DNA from: Methylomonas sp.
GTDB lineage: Bacteria; Pseudomonadota; Gammaproteobacteria; Methylococcales; Methylomonadaceae
Direction: 5' to 3'
Assembly: GCA_002928965.1 (NCBI GenBank)
Contig: PERU01000018.1
Coordinates: 1 to 64,000, forward strand
Length of the DNA stretch: 64,000 bases
Position numbers and translations under genes: made by a program. The notes under the pieces were generated by a model. That model was not told the DNA's origin, did not search any database, and saw only the letters and a program-made list of their open reading frames with translations. The first letter of the stretch is position 1. Every line of letters begins with the position of its first letter. Below, piece after piece: positions 3,001 to 49,201 of the stretch.

Positions 3001-3864
3001 GATTTGGATCCGGGCGTTTATCGTTTGGTGTTTGACAAATCCAATGTCTGGCATAAGTCCTATTGGGGTAGCACGTTCAACATGAACGACTGGTTTTGGA
3101 ATGTGAAAGCCAATGTGGGTACCAACGACAATATCGACTCTGATGTGTTAACCGACGGTACCAAGAAAAATGTGGTTACCACCCACTATACCACTCTGGA
3201 GTCCGGCGAAAACGACATGAGTTGGGATGCGGCGATTACCCCGATTGTGATTGACTTGAACGGTGATGGCATCAAAACCATTGCCCGTGCGGATGCCAAA
3301 GGTACATTTGATTTGTTTGGCAATGGCAAAGCCATTCAGTCTGGTTGGTTATCTGCTGAAGATGGTTTCCTGGCAGTTGATAACAATGGTAACGGTAAAA
3401 TTGATGACATTTCCGAGCTGTTCGGAGGCACCAGCAAAGGCACCGGTTTTGCCAAACTGGCGGATTTTGACAGCAATGGCGATGGCCTTGTTAATGCTGA
3501 TGACGCCAATTTCTCAAGCCTGTTGATTTGGCGGGATCTCAATGGCAATCATCAAAGTGACGACAATGAGCTCTTTAGCTTGAGTGATGCCGGTGTCAGT
3601 GAATTGGTGGTGGGTTTTACAGAGCTGCCATTTATTGATGCGCAAGGCAATTTGCACTTTGAAAGAAGTAGCGCGACTCTGGTAACCGGCCAAACCGTTG
3701 ACATGACAGACGTGTACTTCAATGTTTCGCTTGCTGATGCAACGGCAGCGGGTGTTGAGGTGAACAGCATGGCTGATTTGTTGGCTGATACGGGTTATGC
3801 AGAACAATCTGTCGTAATCGAACCAGTCGGTGTGGCTACGCTGGAACCTGCATTTTTGGGTTAA
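1..3864 (+). CDS. Large SdrD_B-repeat surface protein, 5' end outside window
   Basis: C-terminal 1287 residues of a big secreted or surface protein; the reading frame is open at base 1, so the true start and any signal peptide lie upstream. Four SdrD_B/Cna_B-like beta-sandwich repeats are visible, each opening with a G-D-x-V-W-x-D...G-I-Q-D-x-G-E pattern, at about residues 1-115, 385-498, 835-944 and 948-1072. Between them are a TPGFWKTH motif (150-157), and DUF11-like segments beginning GIDIEK. The last 200 residues hold Asp/Asn/Gly-rich loops (DLNGDGIKT, DNNGNGKIDD, DSNGDG) like EF-hand or RTX-type calcium sites. Such proteins are usually calcium-stabilised adhesins. No LPXTG, PEP-CTERM or clear RTX secretion tail is seen at the C terminus, so the export route is unknown. 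A terminator follows. Family call is firm; function is inferred. Confidence 0.85.
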   Translation: MGDRVWADLDGDGIQDQGELGIAGVNVTLLADLDNDGELDDVVDTATTNASGNYAFTNLTPGDYRVQFDAPTGYFFTQANSGADDALDSDVDPFEGLSHVVTLDAGENDLTIDAGLVLPDWIPEDVIGIDIEKYVRGRFTDETGGGEGLTPGFWKTHSKYGPAVEAGWGETGYDPDASYETIFGVDVTGTPSLLDALGANGGGLSALMRHSAAALLNASNPNVDYAYSKAQVISMTQAAINSGSYETTKNLFEVQNELGADLDTPAGGGTEVVTEWFDADAPTGPYIPVGGTAEFKYEVRNTGDVALSNIEVTDDRIATLTFVGGDTDNDGMLDINEVWTYTASEAVKPGVQYVNVGTATGEYVPGLTVSDFDLAHYNTSALTASIGDRVWLDSNGNGIQDNGENGVSGVTVRLLNAAGTVIGTQLTDSNGNYLFTDLAPADYAIQVVTPNGYGFTGRDLGANDEKDSDVNVLTGKTVNTTISAGENDLSWDAGLIVLAPGIDIEKTTSGSSNSNTVAANYDNEDTANGVGVPVLTVGSDVTWTYKVTNTGNVNFAKADIKVVDDNGTVSNTADDMSIANGKIAYVSGDDGDNILEAGESWIYKASDTVKSQGTTLGTAAIIDFSGSSATDGTDGNSRTYSAGGVNITANAWSRDKGTDSWQKAFLGAYGGGLGVTDSSEGTGASDSTHTVDNNGRDNYIVFQFSKDVVVDKAFLGYVIGDSDLTVYVGSSSTAITSMNNAKLAGMDLKEFNDTSSTSARWADFNAGKVEGNVLIIAARDDGHCVDYFKVEQLVFQAVQQSDGIYSNKATVTVGSLSDSDLSHYKAVEAAPVLTKVGDYVWEDRNFNGIQDSGEKGIANVTVRLLSSTGSILKTTTTDVNGKYGFDVLAGNYMVEVVRPSGYFVTKRDQGSNDGMDSDINASTGRTALFTVNAGQQNLTLDAGLYRKASIGDRVWEDSDHDGIQDVGEFNIANVKVMLQNSSGTTIATTYTNSTGNYKFVDLDPGVYRLVFDKSNVWHKSYWGSTFNMNDWFWNVKANVGTNDNIDSDVLTDGTKKNVVTTHYTTLESGENDMSWDAAITPIVIDLNGDGIKTIARADAKGTFDLFGNGKAIQSGWLSAEDGFLAVDNNGNGKIDDISELFGGTSKGTGFAKLADFDSNGDGLVNADDANFSSLLIWRDLNGNHQSDDNELFSLSDAGVSELVVGFTELPFIDAQGNLHFERSSATLVTGQTVDMTDVYFNVSLADATAAGVEVNSMADLLADTGYAEQSVVIEPVGVATLEPAFLG

Positions 3865-3890
3865 TTCGGTAGCTAAATCTTGACTGCTTT

Positions 3891-3916
3891 GCCACTCCGG
3901 TTTTAGTCGGAGTGGC
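3891..3916. repeat. Perfect 9-bp stem hairpin after the SdrD_B gene
   Basis: GCCACTCCG (3891-3899) pairs with CGGAGTGGC (3908-3916) around an 8-nt loop. No T-run follows directly. It probably helps stop transcription or protects the 3' end together with the terminator just downstream. Confidence 0.5.
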
Positions 3917-3936
3917 ACGATCAGACTGGAAAATGT

Positions 3937-3976
3937 AAAAAGGCGATTTCCTTATCCAGGCAATCGCCTTTTTTTT
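3937..3976 (+). terminator. Rho-independent terminator
   Basis: AAAAAGGCGATT (from 3937) pairs with AATCGCC (3962-3968), followed by a run of eight T. The A-run before the stem makes it potentially bidirectional. It closes the SdrD_B gene and isolates fabV. Confidence 0.85.
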
Positions 3977-4155
3977 GCGGCGATGACTTTGTTTTTCCTG
4001 GCTGACGGTTGCCGGATAAGGTTTATCGATTGGTCATGGCGTAATATTAATTTTCTGTTAGCTCATGGCATGGGATAAACTTTAAGGTTTACAAGGAATA
4101 ATGCCTGCCAGCGCAGGTATTGTCTTATTTTTAATGGCTTGATTTGAGGAGCATC

Positions 4156-5346
4156 ATGATTATCAAACCTCGCGTGCGCGGTTTTATGTGCGTCACTACC
4201 CACCCGGTCGGCTGCGAAGCCAATGTCAAACAACAAATTGATTATGTAAAAGGCTTTGGTGCTATCGATAACGGCCCAAAAAATGTACTGATTCTGGGGG
4301 CTTCCACAGGATATGGTCTGGCGTCACGTATTGTCTCTGCGTTTGGCGCCGGCGCAAAAACCTTGGGTGTTTTCTTTGAACGCGAAGGTGCCGCGGATAA
4401 GCCGGGCACGCCGGGTTGGTACAATTCATCGGCTTTTCATAAATTTGCCGAAGCCGAAGGCTTGTACGCTAAAAGCATTAACGGTGACGCTTTTTCTGAT
4501 GACATCAAACAAAAAACCATAGACGCGATCAAACAGGATTTTGGCCAAGTCGATCTGGTGATATACAGCTTGGCCGCGCCACGCCGGACTCACCCTAAAA
4601 CCGGCGTGACACACAATTCGACTTTAAAACCCATCGGCAAAGACTTGGTGCAAAATGGCATTGATACCGATAAAGAGGTGATCAAAGAATTTACCTTGCC
4701 GGCAGCCACCGAAGAAGAAATAACCAACACCGTGGCGGTTATGGGGGGCGAAGACTGGCAAATGTGGATAGATGCCCTGGCTGAAGCGGATGTACTGGCG
4801 GAAGGTGCCAAAACCACGGCTTACACCTATTTAGGCGAAAAAATCACCTGGGATATTTATTGGGATGGCACTATCGGCGCGGCCAAAAAAGACCTGGATA
4901 AACGCGTTTTGGACATTCGTAGTAAATTGGCAGCTATTGGTGGCGATGCGCGCGTGTCGGTTTTAAAAGCGGTAGTAACCCAAGCCAGTGCGGCCATTCC
5001 GGTCATGCCATTGTATTTGGCGTTACTGTTCAAAATCATGAAAACAGCCGGTACTCACGAAGGCTGCATCGAGCAGGTTAATGGTTTGTTCCGTGACAGC
5101 CTGTATGGCGCCAACCCGGTTCTGGACGAAACAGGCCGCTTACGCGCGGATCTGAAAGAATTGCAGCCGGAAATTCAAGACCAAGTTTCGGCGTTGTGGC
5201 AGCAAATCAACAATGACAATATCCACGATTTGAGCGATTTTGCCGGCTACAAACATGAATTTCTCAAGCTGTTTGGTTTTGAAGTCGACGGCGTTGATTA
5301 TGATGCCGACGTGAATCCGGAGGCGCCGATAGCCAATATGGTTTAA
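4156..5346 (+). CDS. fabV: Trans-2-enoyl-CoA/ACP reductase FabV (NADH)
   Basis: FabV-type enoyl-ACP reductase, which reduces the enoyl-ACP double bond in the last step of each fatty acid elongation cycle, in the cytoplasm. 396 residues, the usual FabV length. Visible are the Rossmann nucleotide-binding segment [11 protein letters not shown] near residue 50 and the family signature Y235-x8-K244 ([10 protein letters not shown]), longer than the Y-x6-K of FabI. An in-frame TTG at 4144 is less likely than the ATG at 4156, which has a GAGGAG Shine-Dalgarno 4 nt upstream. Monocistronic by context: a terminator lies upstream and a hairpin downstream. A weak CCTGC/GCAGG stem with a T-rich tail (4101-4126) lies in the leader; whether it acts is unknown. 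FabV is typically insensitive to triclosan; this is family knowledge. Confidence 0.95.
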
Positions 5347-41692: not shown

Positions 41693-43063
41693 TTACTGCC
41701 ATTGATCTTGCGATAGTCGACGTAAAAATTGATCAACTTTTGCAATCAAGCCGCAGGCATCAGCCCATACAATCTGATTCTTTAAAGCATTTCGTTTCTC
41801 CCAACTCTTATAAATGATCGGGATAGTTAGCGGTTCTGGCGCTTTCTGTTCTGTCTGAAATTTATCCGCGTATTCCAATAACATTTGCCAAAGATTTTGC
41901 CAGCTTTCTGAGTTTGGGCAAATCCTACCCTCGGTAGAACAATATTCAATCAACGAAATGGCTGTTTGAGATAGCTCGGTTTTTCCTGGTAACTCGGTTT
42001 CCTTGTCAGAAAGACTTGCTAATCGAGAATCAATAATACTTTTAGCCCACACAAAAGAAGCATTTTTATTGCCGTTTACTGGATATTTGCTCCATAGCGC
42101 GAATCGATTATCACCATCAATTTCAAACCCAGGCAATCTAATTCGCCCTAGTTTAAAGAAACCAAGAGCGAGCAATGCGGCTGTTAGTATGTGCTTTTCA
42201 TCTGTTTTTATTACGCCATTTGATTGATTTACAAGCGTATTAAATAAAGGGGTAAATGCTACAACATCAGGCCCATATAAGGGATCAGTGCTTGATTCCA
42301 AAAGCTCAGATACTAACAACTCAATTCTATTAGGTGGAGGGTTATCAAAAACTGGCGGTGATGAGGGGCGATTGTTTTCCATTAAGTGTACAAACATCGT
42401 ATCCCATTCCTTCTGCCGAATATTTGGGATGGCTACACCTGCTTCCAAAAAACGCGCGCGTAAGTTGGAAAACTCAGCCATATTTCTATTAGAAAACTTT
42501 AATGTATGTCCTTTAATTGTAATTTTAGCGCTAGTCAGGCTTTGTCTTTCAAAACTTTCAACTTGCAAACTTGTACGACTTGGTTGTTCATCGCGTTGTA
42601 AGGGGGTTGGGCTATCAGTAGACATTCCCTTGAACAAAGGAATATCTGATTGAAACATCCCATTATTACTGATGCAAAATGAATCGTTTTTTGATACTGC
42701 ACATCCAAAAGGGGCTTTTGTTATTGCTAGATAAGATTCTAATTGCGCGCGAGTATTTTCATCTATCTCCTGTTTTTTTACTTCAATAACAATGTATGGA
42801 TTCGATAGATCATCAAGTATGACAATATCTGCCCGCTTTTTAGTTGATCCCATTTGAATAGGATATTCCAAAATAATATTCTGTTCGGGATAGTGATAAT
42901 GGTGGATCAATGACAGAGCGCATAACTGTCTAATAATTTCTTCTGGTCGCGCACGTTTAAAATCATAGTGTGGAACTCCCTGAACGTAAAAAACCCCTTT
43001 TTCACGCTCATCAAAGATTAGGCGACTAAGTATTTCCGGGTTGAGAAGGTTTTTATGAATCAA
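41693..43063 (-). CDS. Stand-alone restriction-type (HsdR_N-like) nuclease domain protein
   Basis: 456 residues. The N-terminal 130 residues resemble type I restriction HsdR_N / PD-(D/E)xK domains: RPEEIIRQLCALSLIHHYHYP, then D79 (KKRADIVILDD) and E94-V-K96 (IVIEVKK), and LESYLAITKAPFGCAVS. No helicase motifs or HsdM/HsdS neighbours. The remaining 300 residues have no recognised domain. The start is a TTG at 43063; a stop three codons upstream excludes a longer frame. More A+T-rich than neighbouring genes by eye, so it may be acquired and may serve phage defence, but that is inference. Confidence 0.68.
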   Translation of the reverse strand: MIHKNLLNPEILSRLIFDEREKGVFYVQGVPHYDFKRARPEEIIRQLCALSLIHHYHYPEQNIILEYPIQMGSTKKRADIVILDDLSNPYIVIEVKKQEIDENTRAQLESYLAITKAPFGCAVSKNDSFCISNNGMFQSDIPLFKGMSTDSPTPLQRDEQPSRTSLQVESFERQSLTSAKITIKGHTLKFSNRNMAEFSNLRARFLEAGVAIPNIRQKEWDTMFVHLMENNRPSSPPVFDNPPPNRIELLVSELLESSTDPLYGPDVVAFTPLFNTLVNQSNGVIKTDEKHILTAALLALGFFKLGRIRLPGFEIDGDNRFALWSKYPVNGNKNASFVWAKSIIDSRLASLSDKETELPGKTELSQTAISLIEYCSTEGRICPNSESWQNLWQMLLEYADKFQTEQKAPEPLTIPIIYKSWEKRNALKNQIVWADACGLIAKVDQFLRRLSQDQWQ

Positions 43064-43227
43064 AACAAATTACCTGAATTTTCTGTTCAAAAACTGATCA
43101 ATTGGGTTACCTTTAAATTTGTAAAGGTGATATTTCAGCATCAACGCTTGATAGCATCGGTAGATGCGGCAATGCGATTGCGTCGATAGTTTGACATGAG
43201 AAAAGTTTAACCGATTTGGCGGATTTT

Positions 43228-43257
43228 GGCGGATGACGCTGCGCTTATCCGCCCTAC
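43228..43257 (-). repeat. REP-like element, minus orientation
   Basis: On the minus strand GTAG (43257-43254) then GGCGGAT...ATCCGCC arms around AAGCGCAGCGTC. Same head and same AGCGxAGCGT centre as the elements at 18911 and 23128. Confidence 0.75.
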
Positions 43258-43268
43258 AGCCTGAAAAG

Positions 43269-43294
43269 CCCTTCGATAAACTCAGGGCGAACGG
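43269..43294. repeat. Dispersed CGTTCGCCCTGAG-type repeat containing the exosortase stop
   Basis: On the minus strand the sequence CCGTTCGCCCTGAG...CGAAGGG spans the last three codons (R-S-P) and the stop of the exosortase gene. A decayed copy lies at 39908-39932. The repeat therefore forms the gene's 3' end. Confidence 0.65.
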
Positions 43295-43968
43295 TATTGA
43301 AGGCTGGTTAACATTACCAGCACAAAAACCGGAAAACCGATGACCCAAAATAAATGCTGCACATTCGGTAAGGCGCTGCCAAGTAAATAGGCCCGAAACA
43401 CTGGCATTAACACGGTGACGCTTAAGTAGATCAATGCTGCTGTCACCGCCATCTGCCTGAACCGTTGCACATCAAAAGCCGATAGCTGTATCCACAGGCA
43501 GGAAAAGTACACCGCAATACCGATTAAACGATGACTGGCTGCTTCCGTGCTGCTGATCAACATTGCTAAGGGCGCTTGTGCGTAAATGCATAGCAAGATG
43601 CGCAAGCTGTTAGCCAGTAAAGCGGTTAGCCAGGCTAAAACCAACGCACGCATCAGTACCCAAAGCGGCATGGGCCGATCACGCCACAGCCAGCAATAGC
43701 CCAGTAGTGAAATGATCAGAAAATTGATGCCGGCGCACGCTTTGACTAGGCTGATGTGATGAATGGGATCCAGCCATTCGCCATTGGCAGTGGGCTCGAA
43801 CAGCAAATCGCTCAAGGCCTCCAGAGTTATCACCAGAGGATACAACTGCCATTGCAATTGCGCGGCGGTGGCCGCGCTGTAGAACTGTTTTAAGGCTACT
43901 AACATGATGGCTACGCATAACCAATAGCCAAGCTGTTTTGCGCGTAGCGGCAGGTTATTGGCAAACAT
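43282..43968 (-). CDS. Exosortase family protein (dedicated system)
   Basis: 228 residues, multi-spanning. The exosortase triad is visible: C78 (KACAGINFLI), R123 (LANSLRI) and H146 (ASHRLIG). Shorter than the usual EpsH-type and not next to EPS genes; instead it overlaps by 14 bp the gene for a VIT/VWA protein that carries a PEP-type C-terminal sorting signal. That is the layout of a one-target exosortase system; the sub-family could not be fixed by eye (XrtK or a related small type is possible). The last codons and stop lie in a dispersed repeat. Confidence 0.82.
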   Translation of the reverse strand: MFANNLPLRAKQLGYWLCVAIMLVALKQFYSAATAAQLQWQLYPLVITLEALSDLLFEPTANGEWLDPIHHISLVKACAGINFLIISLLGYCWLWRDRPMPLWVLMRALVLAWLTALLANSLRILLCIYAQAPLAMLISSTEAASHRLIGIAVYFSCLWIQLSAFDVQRFRQMAVTAALIYLSVTVLMPVFRAYLLGSALPNVQHLFWVIGFPVFVLVMLTSLQYRSP

Positions 43969-44345
43969 GCTGTCTGTCTCTCAGCCAGTACTTCAAACCA
44001 TAGCCTGCCAGTAACAGCAGGATTAACAGCGTCAATTCAGGTTCCGGCATCGGTTGAGCTGCCAGCGCGGATGTTTCCACACCCTGCGGTAAAGGCAGCG
44101 GTTGTTGCACATTTTTGGCGTCGCGGTTTGGGTTGGCAATCACTTCATCGACGGCAATGAATGCGGTGTAGCGGCTCAGCAGCGAATATTTCAGCGCTAA
44201 GTCAATGATTTCCGAGCGATTCAATTCCACCGCATTGCCGGCCCAATCGGACAGGCGCATTAGTTTATGACGCGCCCATAAGATTGGTAGCAATTCTCCC
44301 TGATCAGTCTGTTGAGCAGTATTGATAGGCAACTCGATTGTATTG
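43955..44345 (-). pseudogene. Separated C-terminal part of the VIT/VWA protein with exosortase sorting signal
   Basis: Open frame 43955-44428. From its residue about 26 on it is the true continuation of the upstream protein: SNSNTIELPINTA then QQTDQGELLPILW ... and a C-terminal signal PMPEPELTLLILLLLAGYG followed by KYWLRDRQ, i.e. a PEP-CTERM-like motif, a membrane helix and basic residues. The frame is out of phase with the main gene because of the 67-bp insertion at 44319-44420. Without the insertion the joined protein would be about 668 residues. As it stands, the exposed N-terminal part has no anchor. A sequencing or assembly error cannot be excluded. Confidence 0.7.
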
Positions 44346-44420
44346 CTGTTGGATTTAATGGTAATGTATAGGCAATAAAAAGGCCGTATTGATAGGCAAC
44401 TCGATTGTATTGCTGTTGGA
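44319..44420. repeat. 67-bp frameshifting duplication: 35-bp direct repeats with 32-bp spacer
   Basis: Bases 44319-44353 and 44386-44420 are identical (35 bp), separated by 32 unrelated bases (44354-44385). The offset 67 is not a multiple of three, so the VIT/VWA frame is broken here. The two frames both encode SNSNTIELPINTA. Confidence 0.85.
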
Positions 44421-46028
44421 TGCCGCAATACCGGTCAGCTGCAGACTAGCCGAATCACCCGCGTTACGGTATTTACCAAATATCACCACCGGGCGTTCGG
44501 CCAGCATCACTGGAATAGTGTTGGGTTCCATGTCGTACAACTCCACGCCATTACCTTGCAAATGAATATGGCTCAACAGTGGCGCTTCCACATAGCGACG
44601 GAAACGTGCGCCCACCTCCGGAATCTGACTTTGATCGGTTACCACAAATGGCTCGCCAGCGCCGGCTTGCGCCATGGATTCGATCAAATAGCGGTTTACC
44701 GAGCTGCCGATACCAAAGGCAAACAAGTTGGTGGTATTTAAATGTTTGGCAATCAAATCGTAGGCATCGCGTTCGGCATTGATGTAACCGTCTGTGACCA
44801 CTACGACACTGCGGGCAATCTCAGTATTACTCGGCATGGCATAGGCGGTTTGCAATGCGTTCACCAGTTCTGTGCCGCCACTGCCTTGGTAATCGTCTAG
44901 ACTGGCCAGCGCTTGTTGAATATTAGTCGGCGTTGCTGGCAGCGGTTTGTCGGAGAACACTTCCGAGCCACCGGAAAAGAACAGCATATTGAATGATTCG
45001 TGCGGTTTCAGATTGCTTAGCAATTGCCGCATCAAGGTTTTGGCGGTATCTAATGAAAAGCCGTGCATCGATCCGGATACATCCAGCACAAACACATATT
45101 CGCGCGGCAGGATGTGTTCCGGCTTTACCCGCTCCGGTGGTTGCACCATGGCCAAAAAGAAGTGTTCATCAGCTTGTTGATAAGTCATCAAACCAGACAT
45201 GATCTGATTATCCTGTAAACGGAAATTTAAAATAAAGTCGCGGTTGCCGGCGTTGGTTTCGCTGGCATCCAGGTTGATTTTGGCTGATTTGGCATCGTGC
45301 CAGCGGGTCTGGATTTTATGCTGGGTCGAGTTCAAATCTTTAACGGCAATCGGGCTGGCTAAAGTAATGTTCAGCGATGTGGCTGTTGCAGCCAAATTGC
45401 TGTCATCGGGTTGATTGGCGACGAAGGGATTGCCGATCCAGGCCGCGTCAGACGCTAGCTGGAATGGATCACTGCCATAACGCGGGCCGACGACGGTGGG
45501 ATATACAAATTGGTAGACACCTTGCTCCGGCACCAGCAACTCGCTGTAGGTCAATTCCAGTTCAAGGTCGTCGCCCGGCATCAAATTGGCGGTGTCCATC
45601 ATGAACACATTGGGCCGCTGTTGTTCCAGCAAGGCTGCGCGTTTGCCCTGCGCTTTGGCTTGTTCGAAGGCTTGCTTGGCTTCCTGCTTTTCCTTGATTT
45701 TGGCTTTGATGACTCGTTCGCCAACTTTCATGGTTAAGCCGTGCACAGCAGCACGTGTCGAGCCGGGAAACACGTAACGGGCATTGATCGCCCGGTTACC
45801 GGTATTTTGGTAATGCTGGGTCACGGTGACTTGGGCAATCGGGCCGTTGATGCGAACCTCGGCATGGCTGGATTTGAGCGGCAATTGATCCAGCGCAGGG
45901 TCGCCGTCGGGTATCCACACGCGTGGTGCCAGGCTTTGGGTGCAATCGTCACAGCCCGGCTCAGCCTGCGCAGTTGATAACAAAGCTGCCAGGCTGCAAC
46001 TGATGATGAATAGGGCAATGCGGAACAT
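44355..46028 (-). CDS. VIT and von Willebrand A domain protein, exosortase target (frameshifted end)
   Basis: 557 residues in this frame. Signal peptide MFRIALFIISCSLAALLSTAQA; a VIT domain at about 48-165 (VTVTQHYQNTGNRAINARYVFP; TANLMPGDDLELELTYSE); a VWA domain from about 310 with MIDAS D316-V-S-G-S320. The last eight residues (FLLPIHYH) are the product of the 67-bp insertion; the true end with the sorting signal is in another frame downstream. VIT/VWA proteins are surface or periplasmic binding proteins; in several bacteria they are paired with a sortase or exosortase of their own. The exosortase gene follows. Own signal peptide means it would still be exported, but released rather than anchored. 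Confidence 0.85.
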   Translation of the reverse strand: MFRIALFIISCSLAALLSTAQAEPGCDDCTQSLAPRVWIPDGDPALDQLPLKSSHAEVRINGPIAQVTVTQHYQNTGNRAINARYVFPGSTRAAVHGLTMKVGERVIKAKIKEKQEAKQAFEQAKAQGKRAALLEQQRPNVFMMDTANLMPGDDLELELTYSELLVPEQGVYQFVYPTVVGPRYGSDPFQLASDAAWIGNPFVANQPDDSNLAATATSLNITLASPIAVKDLNSTQHKIQTRWHDAKSAKINLDASETNAGNRDFILNFRLQDNQIMSGLMTYQQADEHFFLAMVQPPERVKPEHILPREYVFVLDVSGSMHGFSLDTAKTLMRQLLSNLKPHESFNMLFFSGGSEVFSDKPLPATPTNIQQALASLDDYQGSGGTELVNALQTAYAMPSNTEIARSVVVVTDGYINAERDAYDLIAKHLNTTNLFAFGIGSSVNRYLIESMAQAGAGEPFVVTDQSQIPEVGARFRRYVEAPLLSHIHLQGNGVELYDMEPNTIPVMLAERPVVIFGKYRNAGDSASLQLTGIAASNSNTIELPINTAFLLPIHYH

Positions 46029-46364
46029 GATGTCTCTCCTCGTGATGTTTGGGGTGAGACCAGGATACGCAAGCGAGATGTGGGTTTTATGGGGTGTTTG
46101 TGTGATTTATGTGTGGAATGTATGCGTAGTGTATTTCCAGTATGAGGACGGCCTGTCGGTTTTTTTTGCGTAAAAAGAAGAGATTTTTTGTGGTGCCAGA
46201 TTGTCAAGCCAAAATAGCCCATTTGTTGACTTGGATAACATTAAATGAGAATCTAAGGCCGCCCAGTTTGGCTGCTTGTGTGATTTTGTTAGCCAGCGCA
46301 TCAGCTCCATAGGGAAATTATAGAGTTCAGTTTATTCAATCAAATTTAAATGTAGGATCATTTT
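46029..46364. other. Divergent promoter region between VIT/VWA and PEP-CTERM genes
   Basis: 336 bp between divergent starts. Open frames here are overlapping shadows. A TTCAGTTTATTCAATCAAATTT-type A+T-rich stretch and AGGATC Shine-Dalgarno precede the PEP-CTERM gene. Nothing else was recognised. Confidence 0.5.
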
Positions 46365-46997
46365 ATGAAATTAACCGTAGTCACTTTTGCGCGTACTATG
46401 AGTATGGTGGGTATTTTATTTGCAGGTAGTAATGCCATGGCATTTACTACGGGTGATTATGTGACCAGTCAAAATTATGTAATCGATGCGGCACAAAGTA
46501 GCATTTCTTATAATCCAGGAATATTAGCGTTCGGTGCAGATGATATTGACTCAAGCCTATCTACAGTGACTTATAATGTAGCTGGAACATTTACTTTAAA
46601 TATCAATCATTTTTCCTGGAGTACTCCTAGTGACTGGGTGCAGTTCACCAACTCGGCAGTAGTTGTAAATGGTCAGATACCGGGATTTCAGTTGCCTTTG
46701 TTTTTCAGTGAATTGACTTCACCCACTCAATTTTCAGGGAATGATGGACCTTGTTCAGGACCAAGAACTCCAGATACATTTTGTACTGGCTTTCAAAATG
46801 GTCCTAGCTCGTCGCTATCAGGACAATTTCAAGATGGCAAATTACTATTGACTGGTTATCAACCCAATGAGAATTACTTATTTGGAGGGGGGTACAATTA
46901 TAGTTTTGTAGCGACTGTTGTACCTGTGCCTACAGCTTTTTGGTTATTCGCGTCTGCATTAGGTTTTTTTGGCATGTCCAAGAGAGCGAAGAAATAA
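46365..46997 (+). CDS. PEP-CTERM sorting-domain protein
   Basis: 210 residues. N-terminal signal peptide (SMVGILFAGSNAMA), a beta-rich Ser/Thr/Asn body of unknown function, and the C-terminal signal VPVPTAFWLFASALGF then KRAKK, the VPVP-type PEP-CTERM motif (P, helix, basic tail). This type is usually handled by an EpsH-like exosortase, which is not in this window; the exosortase at 43282 seems specialised for the VIT/VWA protein. Divergent from that gene. A perfect 12-bp stem hairpin follows. Confidence 0.85.
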   Translation: MKLTVVTFARTMSMVGILFAGSNAMAFTTGDYVTSQNYVIDAAQSSISYNPGILAFGADDIDSSLSTVTYNVAGTFTLNINHFSWSTPSDWVQFTNSAVVVNGQIPGFQLPLFFSELTSPTQFSGNDGPCSGPRTPDTFCTGFQNGPSSSLSGQFQDGKLLLTGYQPNENYLFGGGYNYSFVATVVPVPTAFWLFASALGFFGMSKRAKK

Positions 46998-47065: not shown

Positions 47066-48508
47066 TTAGTTTGACGGGAATGCCAGTACAGCTTCTGTTC
47101 CATTTTTATCCGCAGTCAGTCTTACCATCCCATGGTGTAACTCCATCACTTCCTTAACAAAACTTAACCCCAAGCCAGAGCTACGCACTTGGTTGTCAGG
47201 GCGAGGTAGGGAATAAAAACGTTCGAAGAGTCTGTCTTTGGCGTACTCCGGGATGCCGGGGCCTTGATCGCTTACACTGATCAGTATGTGCTGTGCTTCG
47301 ACAACTGCGCTGAGCGTAATCAGGCCGCCGATTGGCGAGTAGGCGATAGCATTATCAAGGATATTGAATAAGGCTTGGCGGATTAAAAAACGTTCTCCTT
47401 GAAGTGTAATGGGATCGGTCTGCTCGATAACCAGATTGATGTGTTTTTGGCTGAGTGCGGCATGCAATGATGAGGCGATTTCCTGCACAATCTCGTCTAT
47501 CGCCAGCGGTTGTTTATCGATAACACCGTGGCGGTTTTCCACTGCGGCCAATTCCAGCAAGCGTTGGATCAAATTCAAGGCCCGCTGATTTTCGGATTGG
47601 ATATTCTCGATAAAGCGTTTTCGTTGCGCAGGTGGCATGTCTTCCAGCAACAACTCTGCAGATGCTTTGATTGATGTTAACGGGCTTTTCAGTTCATGCG
47701 CCAAGGTTTGCGTGTAGCGTTCTATGTATTGCTTGCCATCCAGTGCTTGCCGCATGGCAGATATGGCATCGGCGACGCTGCCTATTTCATTGTCTCCCAG
47801 GTCCGGCGTGGTCAAAGTTTCGCCTTGGGCGATGCCTTTGGCAAATTGCGCGACTTGGTACAACGGTCGGCTGATCCACAGATACAGCAAGGTCACGGTC
47901 AGCAATGCTAGCAAGGCAATGCCGGCTACCGCCCACAGCAAATCCTGGCGGGCGGTGAGAATAAATTGGGTAACGTTGACTTTGGGCTTGCCGACACTGA
48001 GGACGCCGACCAAATCGCCTTCCCGCAAAATGGGCGCAGCCACATAGGCAATCGAGCGGGCTTCGCGGTCGTCGTGGCGCAGCGGGATTTCCGTTAACGG
48101 CGACGAACGAACGCCATAGTGGCCTTGCAGCGTCAGGTGCACGTCACGCCAGTTGGCAAAGTTTTGGCCCAGCGCTTTGTGCTGACTGTCGAATACCACC
48201 TTGCCGTTGCGGTCGGTGATATAGACACGGACATCGATGTCGTTTTTGTGCAAACCGTAAATATCGGCGTTGGGATTGCGTTGATAGACCCTTTGGAAGG
48301 CGGTTTGCAGGTTTTTAAATTCCGGCTGTGGGCGGTCGAATTCCTGGCCGGCGATTTCCGCCAGGATATTGGCCATATCCACTAACGGCTCTTCAAACGA
48401 CTGATAATAGCGTGGGCGCAGTTCCAGGCTGAGCCAGCGTTCCAACGCAAAAAATCCGCTGAACAGCGCCAGTAAAAACACCAGCAGAATACGCGAACGA
48501 ACGGTCAT
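47066..48508 (-). CDS. creC: Sensor histidine kinase CreC
   Basis: 480 residues. TM1 at 7-22 and TM2 at about 190-211 bracket a periplasmic sensor domain with ELRPRYYQSFEEPLVDMANILA, typical of CreC. HAMP from about 212, H-box TLAHELKSPLTSI with H271, then N, G1 and G2 boxes (DNAIAYSP, DQGPGIP, SSGLGLSFV). Response regulator creB is upstream with a 3-bp gap. CreBC responds to metabolic state in enterobacteria; the signal here is unknown. Confidence 0.92.
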   Translation of the reverse strand: MTVRSRILLVFLLALFSGFFALERWLSLELRPRYYQSFEEPLVDMANILAEIAGQEFDRPQPEFKNLQTAFQRVYQRNPNADIYGLHKNDIDVRVYITDRNGKVVFDSQHKALGQNFANWRDVHLTLQGHYGVRSSPLTEIPLRHDDREARSIAYVAAPILREGDLVGVLSVGKPKVNVTQFILTARQDLLWAVAGIALLALLTVTLLYLWISRPLYQVAQFAKGIAQGETLTTPDLGDNEIGSVADAISAMRQALDGKQYIERYTQTLAHELKSPLTSIKASAELLLEDMPPAQRKRFIENIQSENQRALNLIQRLLELAAVENRHGVIDKQPLAIDEIVQEIASSLHAALSQKHINLVIEQTDPITLQGERFLIRQALFNILDNAIAYSPIGGLITLSAVVEAQHILISVSDQGPGIPEYAKDRLFERFYSLPRPDNQVRSSGLGLSFVKEVMELHHGMVRLTADKNGTEAVLAFPSN

Positions 48509-48511
48509 GAT

Positions 48512-49201
48512 TTATTGCAGCGAATAGCCAATGCCGCGATGGGTGCGAATCACATCATCGCCGGGTCTTACTGTAAACAGTTTGGCGCGGAGAGTTTTGA
48601 TGTGGGTATCGATAGCGCGGTCTAGTCTATGTTCCGGGGCGTCCCAGCAGCGGCTTAGCAATTCTTCGCGGCTGAATACTCGTTGCGGTTGCTGGATTAG
48701 GGTTTGCAGCAAACGAAATTCATGCAAGGTTAATAGCAGCGGCATGCCGTGGTAGTGAATTTCAAAGCGTTCGGCGATGATTTTGAAACGGGTTTGCTCT
48801 GGCCGTGGTGGTTCGGTGATATTAGGCTGGCTGCGTCTAAGTACCGCTCTTACCCGTGCACACAATTCCCGTGGGCTGAAGGGTTTGCTGATGTAATCGT
48901 CTGCGCCCAGTTCCAAACCGACGATACGATCGATTTCTTCGCTACGGGCGGTGAGGAAGATCACAGCCGGCGGGGTTTCTAACTGGGTTTGTAATCGCCG
49001 GAAAATCTCAAAGCCGTTAGTGTCAGGTAAGCCGATGTCCAGTAGAATCAACTGCGGATACAGGGTTCTGGCACATTCGATACCTTCATGGCCGGTGCTG
49101 CGCCAGTGTGTCTGAAAGCCGTCTGTGCTCAGTGCATAACAAATGGTTTCGGCAATCGCCGCTTCGTCTTCAATGACAAGAATCACACGCGCTTCAGTCA
49201 T
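48512..49201 (-). CDS. creB: Response regulator CreB (OmpR family)
   Basis: 229 residues: receiver domain with acidic E11-D12, phospho-acceptor D55 (LLDIGLPD) and K (SKPFSPREL), then a winged-helix trans-act domain (LTLHEFRLLQTLIQQPQRVFSREELL). First gene of the creB-creC operon. Confidence 0.92.
   Translation of the reverse strand: MTEARVILVIEDEAAIAETICYALSTDGFQTHWRSTGHEGIECARTLYPQLILLDIGLPDTNGFEIFRRLQTQLETPPAVIFLTARSEEIDRIVGLELGADDYISKPFSPRELCARVRAVLRRSQPNITEPPRPEQTRFKIIAERFEIHYHGMPLLLTLHEFRLLQTLIQQPQRVFSREELLSRCWDAPEHRLDRAIDTHIKTLRAKLFTVRPGDDVIRTHRGIGYSLQ

What the first reader, a model, noticed from the sequence alone, without database searches (positions are those of the whole stretch)
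43282..46028. Exosortase with one dedicated VIT/VWA target, currently uncoupled by a frameshift
Exosortase triad C78/R123/H146 and overlapping VIT/VWA gene with a PEPELTLL-type end form a two-gene sorting system. A 67-bp insertion moves the sorting signal out of frame, so the product would be released. The exosortase is intact.
Basis: partly seen in the sequence, partly recalled or inferred. Interest (0 to 1): 0.65.

Follow-up and report, generated by a model that had tools for sequence, protein, structure and literature searches.

The report
CreBC-linked exosortase pair, target gene broken
A genome from the family of the methane oxidiser Methylobacter carries a protein-anchoring enzyme (exosortase K) beside its single dedicated surface protein, apparently switched by the envelope-stress regulator CreBC, and a recent small duplication has cut off that protein's anchoring tail; the module is an interesting variant, while the breakage looks like an ordinary recent mutation.

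Summary
On the minus strand an intact XrtK-type exosortase (43282-43968; C78/R123/H146) follows a VIT/VWA gene (44355-46028) whose last ~120 codons, with the QPMPEPEL-transmembrane-basic sorting tail, lie in another frame (43955-44428). The cause is a 67-bp insertion: two exact 36-bp repeats (not 35), 31 bp apart. In 17 of 22 pairs compared, one a same-genus relative, the target is one open frame, so the intact form is ancestral. The shifted tail is as conserved as that relative's (33 of 38 near-invariant positions each), so the break is recent, or an assembly fault; reads were not available. None of 21 other pairs has such repeats (longest 12 bp), so phase variation lacks comparative support. 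The truncated product would also lose two helices and a strand of its ITIH-like fold. In the genus only the two genomes with the pair have this CreC, and neither has CreD. Best reading: a CreBC-controlled one-substrate exosortase module, a new variant of a known kind, uncoupled here.

The parts
43282..43968 (-). exosortase, XrtK type, 228 aa, intact; C78, R123, H146
   Evidence: TIGR04287 60.3 bits, cut-off 55; residues checked; invariant in 15 aligned sequences, window included
43955..44428 (-). out-of-frame C-terminal part of the VIT/VWA target (about 130 codons), overlapping the exosortase start by 14 nt
   Evidence: ORF; TIGR03788 positions 502-597, E 6.8e-13, and the end of TIGR04286 MSEP-CTERM, E 0.0014; 33 of 38 near-invariant positions kept
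43958..44056 (-). sorting tail QPMPEPEL / hydrophobic helix / basic end, out of frame
   Evidence: translation; tail alignment A4 of 19 rows, P-E-P invariant
44319..44354 (.). 36-bp direct repeat, copy 1
44355..44385 (.). 31 bp between the repeats; found once in the genome; holds a degenerate 14-base echo of the repeat start (12 of 1000 shuffles as good)
44386..44421 (.). 36-bp direct repeat, copy 2
44355..46028 (-). VIT/VWA target as now readable: signal peptide (by eye), VIT, VWA, truncated at 557 aa
   Evidence: Pfam VIT 6.5e-36 and VWA_3 8.1e-19; TIGR03788 364 bits, below cut-off 551.65
46102..46117 (-). cre/blr-tag-like direct repeat TCCAC-N6-ATCAC, 89 bp upstream of the target start
   Evidence: 8 of 10 to TTCAC-N6-TTCAC; tag as published in PMC4689548 (passages)
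47066..48508 (-). sensor kinase CreC
   Evidence: NF008312 525 bits, cut-off 356
48512..49201 (-). response regulator CreB
   Evidence: NF008296 297 bits, cut-off 273

Best explanation
The locus is a one-substrate exosortase module under the CreBC envelope-stress two-component system. When CreB is active it would bind the tag upstream of the VIT/VWA gene and turn on the target and, by overlapping translation, the XrtK exosortase. The target (signal peptide, ITIH-like VIT/VWA body, PEPE motif, transmembrane helix, basic end) would be exported, cut at its tail by XrtK and attached to the cell surface. In this genome a recent 67-bp tandem duplication with filler has moved the last ~120 codons out of frame: the readable product keeps VIT and VWA but loses the end of its fold and the whole tail, so the exosortase has no substrate. 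Shown: gene identities, catalytic residues, frame break, ancestral intact form, CreBC linkage, tag-like repeats. Inferred: CreB binding, cleavage, attachment, translational coupling, the fate of the truncated product, and that the duplication is real.
For: Pair in 20 of 32 loci of the genome scan (19 with most of the target, L085 with only its end) plus the window and G014. One frame through the tail in 17 of 22 pairs; broken in 3 (window, L072, L078), N-gap in 2 (L077, L085). Window tail 33 of 38 and G014 tail 33 of 38 near-invariant positions. CreC-like match of at least 130 bits in the fetched stretch of 14 of 22 pairs (L068 and L080 cut by an end), and of 2 of 3 XrtQ-type loci. CreC at E <= 1e-120 in 2 of 37 genus genomes (at most 43 candidates scored per genome); these are the only two members of the genus with an XrtK match. 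CreD in neither (0 of 2; the E. coli control rings). Tag-like repeat of 8 of 10 or better at -80..-120 in 12 of 19 loci, against 0 of 19 in each of nine bins beyond -120 (3 and 1 in the two nearer bins); N6 gives the most of 14 spacings (12 of 19; next N3, 8 of 19).
Against: The -80..-120 bin was chosen after seeing where the best matches lay, 7 of 19 loci do not reach 8 of 10, and the loci are related. The half-site in XrtK loci is mostly TCCAC, not TTCAC; among 30 permuted half-sites TTCCA scores higher (7.95 against 7.74), ATTCC equal, and TCCAT and CATTC nearly so, partly because they are shifted readings of the same repeat. A sequence upstream of creD in L075 reaches only 7 of 10. 8 of 22 pairs show no CreC in the fetched stretch. 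The window target body keeps fewer conserved positions than G014's (167 against 175 of 180), so constraint may have eased before the break. Assembly error cannot be ruled out without reads. I saw no biochemistry of XrtK.
Confidence: 0.7

Rival explanations
1. The duplication is an assembly or sequencing artefact and the pair is intact in the cell. (Not exclusive of the module reading.)
For: 85-contig assembly; the tail is undecayed; no reads available. The frame break in relative L072/G060 sits in a contig where a neighbouring gene, by eye a UDP-glucose dehydrogenase, is also split, so such faults occur in MAGs.
Against: The 31 bp between the repeats are found nowhere else in the genome and hold a degenerate echo of the repeat, which is not what collapsing or mis-joining known sequence gives. 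CreC, the exosortase, a HerA-like (name recalled) gene and an alaS-like (name recalled) gene align to G014 in one frame each.
Confidence: 0.25
2. Programmed on/off variation: slippage between the 36-bp repeats switches the target between anchored and released forms.
For: Repeat geometry (36-bp exact repeats, offset 67, not a multiple of 3). Two other pairs have breaks in the same C-terminal region: 3 of 3 sequence-level breaks in about 13% of the pair's length, nominal p 0.0024.
Against: In 21 other pairs the longest exact repeat in the last 500 nt is 12 bp. That p is after the fact; without the window it is 0.018, and without L072 too (indel-prone contig) 0.13. No population data.
Confidence: 0.07
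3. Decay: the module is being lost and the target is a pseudogene, the exosortase a remnant. (Not exclusive of the module reading.)
For: The pair's exosortase is rare in the family (5 of 237 genomes); slightly lower conservation of the target body.
Against: Exosortase and CreBC are intact; XrtK pN/pS 0.41 against G014; tail undecayed.
Confidence: 0.4
4. The truncated 557-aa form is itself selected as a secreted VIT/VWA protein.
For: VIT, VWA and the sandwich after VWA are kept.
Against: The lost part is conserved (38 near-invariant positions) and part of it belongs to the region that aligns with PARP4 and ITIH1; the break looks recent.
Confidence: 0.06

Closest known systems
XrtK / MSEP-CTERM system (NCBIfam TIGR04287 / TIGR04286)
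   Same: Exosortase model over cut-off; single adjacent VIT-bearing target; the window's tail matches the end of the MSEP-CTERM model weakly (E 0.0014). That these two models form one system is recalled, and fits the Kordia locus L092.
   Different: The target is a VIT+VWA protein with a PEPE tail, upstream of xrtK; the MSEP-type proteins are about 890-946 aa, show VIT but no VWA in the 3 scanned with Pfam, and lie downstream of xrtK
Proteobacterial dedicated sortase system (TIGR03788 target, class GN sortase TIGR03784; two-component models TIGR03785/TIGR03787)
   Same: Homologous VIT/VWA target beside one sorter; that this system has its own two-component pair is recalled from the model names
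   Different: Exosortase instead of an LPXTG-type sortase, PEPE tail, CreBC-type regulators (TIGR03785/TIGR03787 match far below cut-off); target below the TIGR03788 cut-off
XrtQ-like and XrtT exosortases with VIT/VWA targets in the same order
   Same: Homologous targets in G038, G059, G069 (XrtQ-like) and G050, G053 (XrtT); CreBC-like genes beside 2 of 3 XrtQ-like loci
   Different: Other exosortase families: XrtT over cut-off in G050; XrtQ best model but below cut-off in G038 (195 against 270 bits); the others assigned by similarity to these. Different tails (VPTTPEP or VPSTPEP; APEPST or TPEPST)
CreBC-CreD regulon
   Same: CreB and CreC over cut-offs and a cre/blr-tag-like repeat upstream of the controlled gene
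   Different: No CreD in this genome or in G014; the tagged operon is the exosortase pair

Membership tests
Exosortase K (TIGR04287) | score over curated cut-off | tested here: met
   60.3 against 55 bits
Exosortase K (TIGR04287) | exosortase Cys/Arg/His triad | tested here: met
   C78, R123, H146, invariant in 15 aligned sequences
XrtK/MSEP-CTERM system | adjacent MSEP-CTERM target (TIGR04286 over cut-off) | tested here: not met
   only a 16.6-bit match of the tail, cut-off 150
XrtK/MSEP-CTERM system | processing of the target by the exosortase | not testable with these tools
   needs bench work
Marine proteobacterial sortase target (TIGR03788) | score over cut-off 551.65 | tested here: not met
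   364 bits (body) and 48 bits (tail); the body is truncated, but the intact XrtQ-type target L058 also scores only 442, the XrtT-type L060 476, while the sortase-type L062 scores 677
Marine proteobacterial sortase target (TIGR03788) | adjacent class GN sortase | tested here: not met
   no tblastn match at 1e-10 to the G056 sortase in the 64-kb window
CreBC two-component system | CreC and CreB models over cut-off | tested here: met
   525 against 356; 297 against 273 bits
CreBC regulon | TTCAC-N6-TTCAC tag upstream of the operon | tested here: inconclusive
   8 of 10 in the window, placed as in relatives; half-sites mostly TCCAC
CreBC regulon | CreD | tested here: not met
   0 of 2 genomes
Phase-variable gene | both forms in one population | not testable with these tools
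   no reads

The most novel reading that the evidence does not exclude
CreBC in this lineage lacks its classical output CreD and drives a surface-anchored ITIH-like VIT/VWA protein instead, with different sorters (XrtK, XrtQ-like) used on homologous targets in different lineages; and in this strain a reversible repeat-mediated frame change in the target switches the protein from anchored to released.
Probability: 0.07. Interest if true: 0.75.

Novelty: new variant of a known kind. Interest (0 to 1): 0.42.

Why it matters
Exosortase systems generally serve many substrates and have no well-known trigger (general knowledge). A one-enzyme, one-substrate pair with a likely sensor, regulator and operator would make exosortase processing and surface attachment easier to test, and would give CreBC, known mainly through CreD and the beta-lactam response, a surface-protein output. 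The frameshift, if real, offers a natural exosortase without its substrate for comparison.

Tried and rejected
Mobile-element origin of the 67 bp: the 31-bp stretch occurs once in the genome and a 36-bp duplication is long for a target-site duplication (general knowledge); rejected. Recurrent frame-break hotspot: three sequence-level breaks and two N-gaps fall in the C-terminal region, but L072 sits in an indel-prone contig, L077 has five N-runs, and without the window and L072 one case remains; rejected as evidence. Strict TYCACANNNNNTYCAC sites in the genome: 6 against 2 in the reversed control, none of them the window's own site; not followed. Solved structures related to XrtK by sequence: none credible, one hit at E 0.1 to an olfactory receptor. 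Literature: searches for exosortase K/XrtK/MSEP-CTERM, exosortase with VIT, exosortase with frameshift or phase variation, exosortase with CreBC/CreD/VWA and CreBC with the tag listed no paper that, by title and start of abstract, describes this pairing; lists were capped at 20 (of 419 and 193). Only listings were seen apart from passages of PMC4689548. Exosortase tree: the XrtK-VIT/VWA rows are one side of a branch with weak support (78/58), and long branches limit it. Target tree: the XrtK-type targets form one group (98). Kept out of the 22-pair count: L071 (contig holds no target), L093 (Acidobacteria; VIT/VWA with a PEPD tail next to an open XrtK-like frame), L056 and L003 (same contig as L072).

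Full report
What is there. On the minus strand, 43282-43968 encodes a 228-aa exosortase with the Cys/Arg/His triad at C78, R123 and H146. It passes the curated cut-off of exosortase K (60.3 against 55 bits), and the triad is invariant in an alignment of 15 sequences, all 15 of which match the exosortase K model at E <= 0.001. Upstream, 44355-46028 encodes a 557-aa protein with a VIT and a VWA domain. Its natural continuation, ending in QPMPEPEL, a hydrophobic helix and a basic end, is in another frame (ORF 43955-44428). Two exact 36-bp repeats at offset 67, with 31 bp between them, cause the shift.

Where it is. The genome has 4.03 Mb in 85 contigs. Its family includes G060, whose 37,818-bp contig is that of Methylobacter sp. 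WM.3.3. The genus was not named by any search.

Ancestral state. The same-genus genome G014 carries the pair with one open frame for the target. A scan of named genomes gave 32 loci. In 20 of them the exosortase lies next to a VIT/VWA target, in 19 with most of the target and in L085 with only its end; L071 holds no target; of L089-L099, ten have a long protein with an MSEP-like end downstream (by eye; only L092 was tested against TIGR04286) and L093 has another VIT/VWA pair. With the window and G014 that makes 22 pairs: 17 in one frame through the tail, 3 broken (window, L072, L078), 2 interrupted by N (L077, L085). The longest exact repeat in the last 500 nt of the 21 other pairs is 12 bp, against 36 in the window. 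The window's shifted tail keeps 33 of 38 near-invariant positions, as many as G014's intact tail, and its pN/pS against G014 is 0.31 (body 0.21, exosortase 0.41; synonymous sites are near saturation). So the break is recent, or an artefact of assembly.

What the break does. In an AlphaFold2 model of an intact relative (L068 target, mean pLDDT 76), the window's break falls just after strand 536-543. VIT, VWA and the sandwich after VWA remain; helices 556-570 and 580-590, strand 597-602, the linker and the tail helix 641-659 are lost. The model's best PDB matches are inter-alpha-inhibitor heavy chain 1 (TM-score 0.60-0.62 by query length), and sequence similarity to PARP4 extends to residue 605, so part of a conserved fold goes with the anchor. 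The out-of-frame tail ORF overlaps the exosortase start by 14 nt, so the early stop may also lower exosortase translation (inference).

One dedicated target. The genome has one VIT match (E <= 0.01). The profile of 19 tails, the window's own among them, finds the window tail at E 1.6e-22; the next best of 7 matches is E 0.007, probably ordinary PEP-CTERM ends (not examined). Two other exosortase-like genes lie elsewhere in the genome (C2 and C51).

CreBC. CreC and CreB, both over curated cut-offs, lie at 47066-49201. A CreC-like match of at least 130 bits lies in the fetched stretch of 14 of 22 pairs (8 show none), and beside 2 of 3 XrtQ-like loci; kinases near the two XrtT loci reach only 109 bits. 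In the genus, CreC at E <= 1e-120 occurs in 2 of 37 genomes (at most 43 candidates scored per genome), the only two of the genus with an XrtK match. Neither has CreD, while the E. coli control rings. A direct repeat like the published cre/blr tag TTCAC-N6-TTCAC (PMC4689548, passages seen) lies at 46102-46117, 89 bp before the target start. Scored with the published tag, 12 of 19 loci reach 8 of 10 or better at -80..-120, against 0 of 19 in each of nine bins beyond -120 and 3 and 1 of 19 in the two nearer bins. Two XrtQ-like loci have perfect tags at -108 (L058; L059, distance corrected). Caveats: the bin was chosen; the XrtK half-sites are mostly TCCAC; rotated half-sites score as well, one slightly better; N3 spacing gives 8 of 19; start codons were chosen by me; the loci are related.

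Sorter exchange. Homologous VIT/VWA targets in the same order sit beside XrtQ-like exosortases (G038, G059, G069), XrtT (G050, G053) or a class GN sortase (G056). On a quick tree the XrtK-type targets form one group (SH-aLRT 98), so this looks like few old exchanges rather than constant swapping.

Verdict. The frameshift is most simply a recent private mutation or an assembly fault; phase variation lacks support. The more interesting part is the CreBC link, which rests on gene neighbourhood, co-occurrence and a positioned repeat, not on any experiment.

Noticed in passing
46365-46997 (+): A 210-aa protein with a PEP-CTERM-like end (VPVPTAFWLFASALGFFGMSKRAKK) lies between CreC and the VIT/VWA gene; it scores below the PEP-CTERM cut-offs and its tail is unlike the XrtK-type tail.
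   Followed up: partly
41693-43063 (-): Protein with an HSDR_N_2 nuclease-type domain between a HerA-like gene (name recalled) and xrtK; no such ORF is listed between the two in G014.
   Followed up: no
43215-43300: REP-like repeated-looking sequence just past and inside the 3' end of xrtK, so the last residues of XrtK may derive from it; the G014 xrtK also ends in a repeat-like stretch. Judged by eye.
   Followed up: no
L056:11414-12732: A gene that by eye is a UDP-glucose dehydrogenase is split into two overlapping frames in Methylobacter sp. WM.3.3 (G060), suggesting an indel-prone assembly.
   Followed up: partly
L091, L092, L094-L097 (about 3100-4440): CreD-like matches end 478-642 bp before xrtK in 6 Kordia loci, hinting that XrtK and Cre functions are linked in Bacteroidota too.
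   Followed up: no
L093:2851-5500: An Acidobacteria MAG has a VIT/VWA gene with a PEPD tail next to an open XrtK-like frame, so the pair reaches beyond Proteobacteria.
   Followed up: partly
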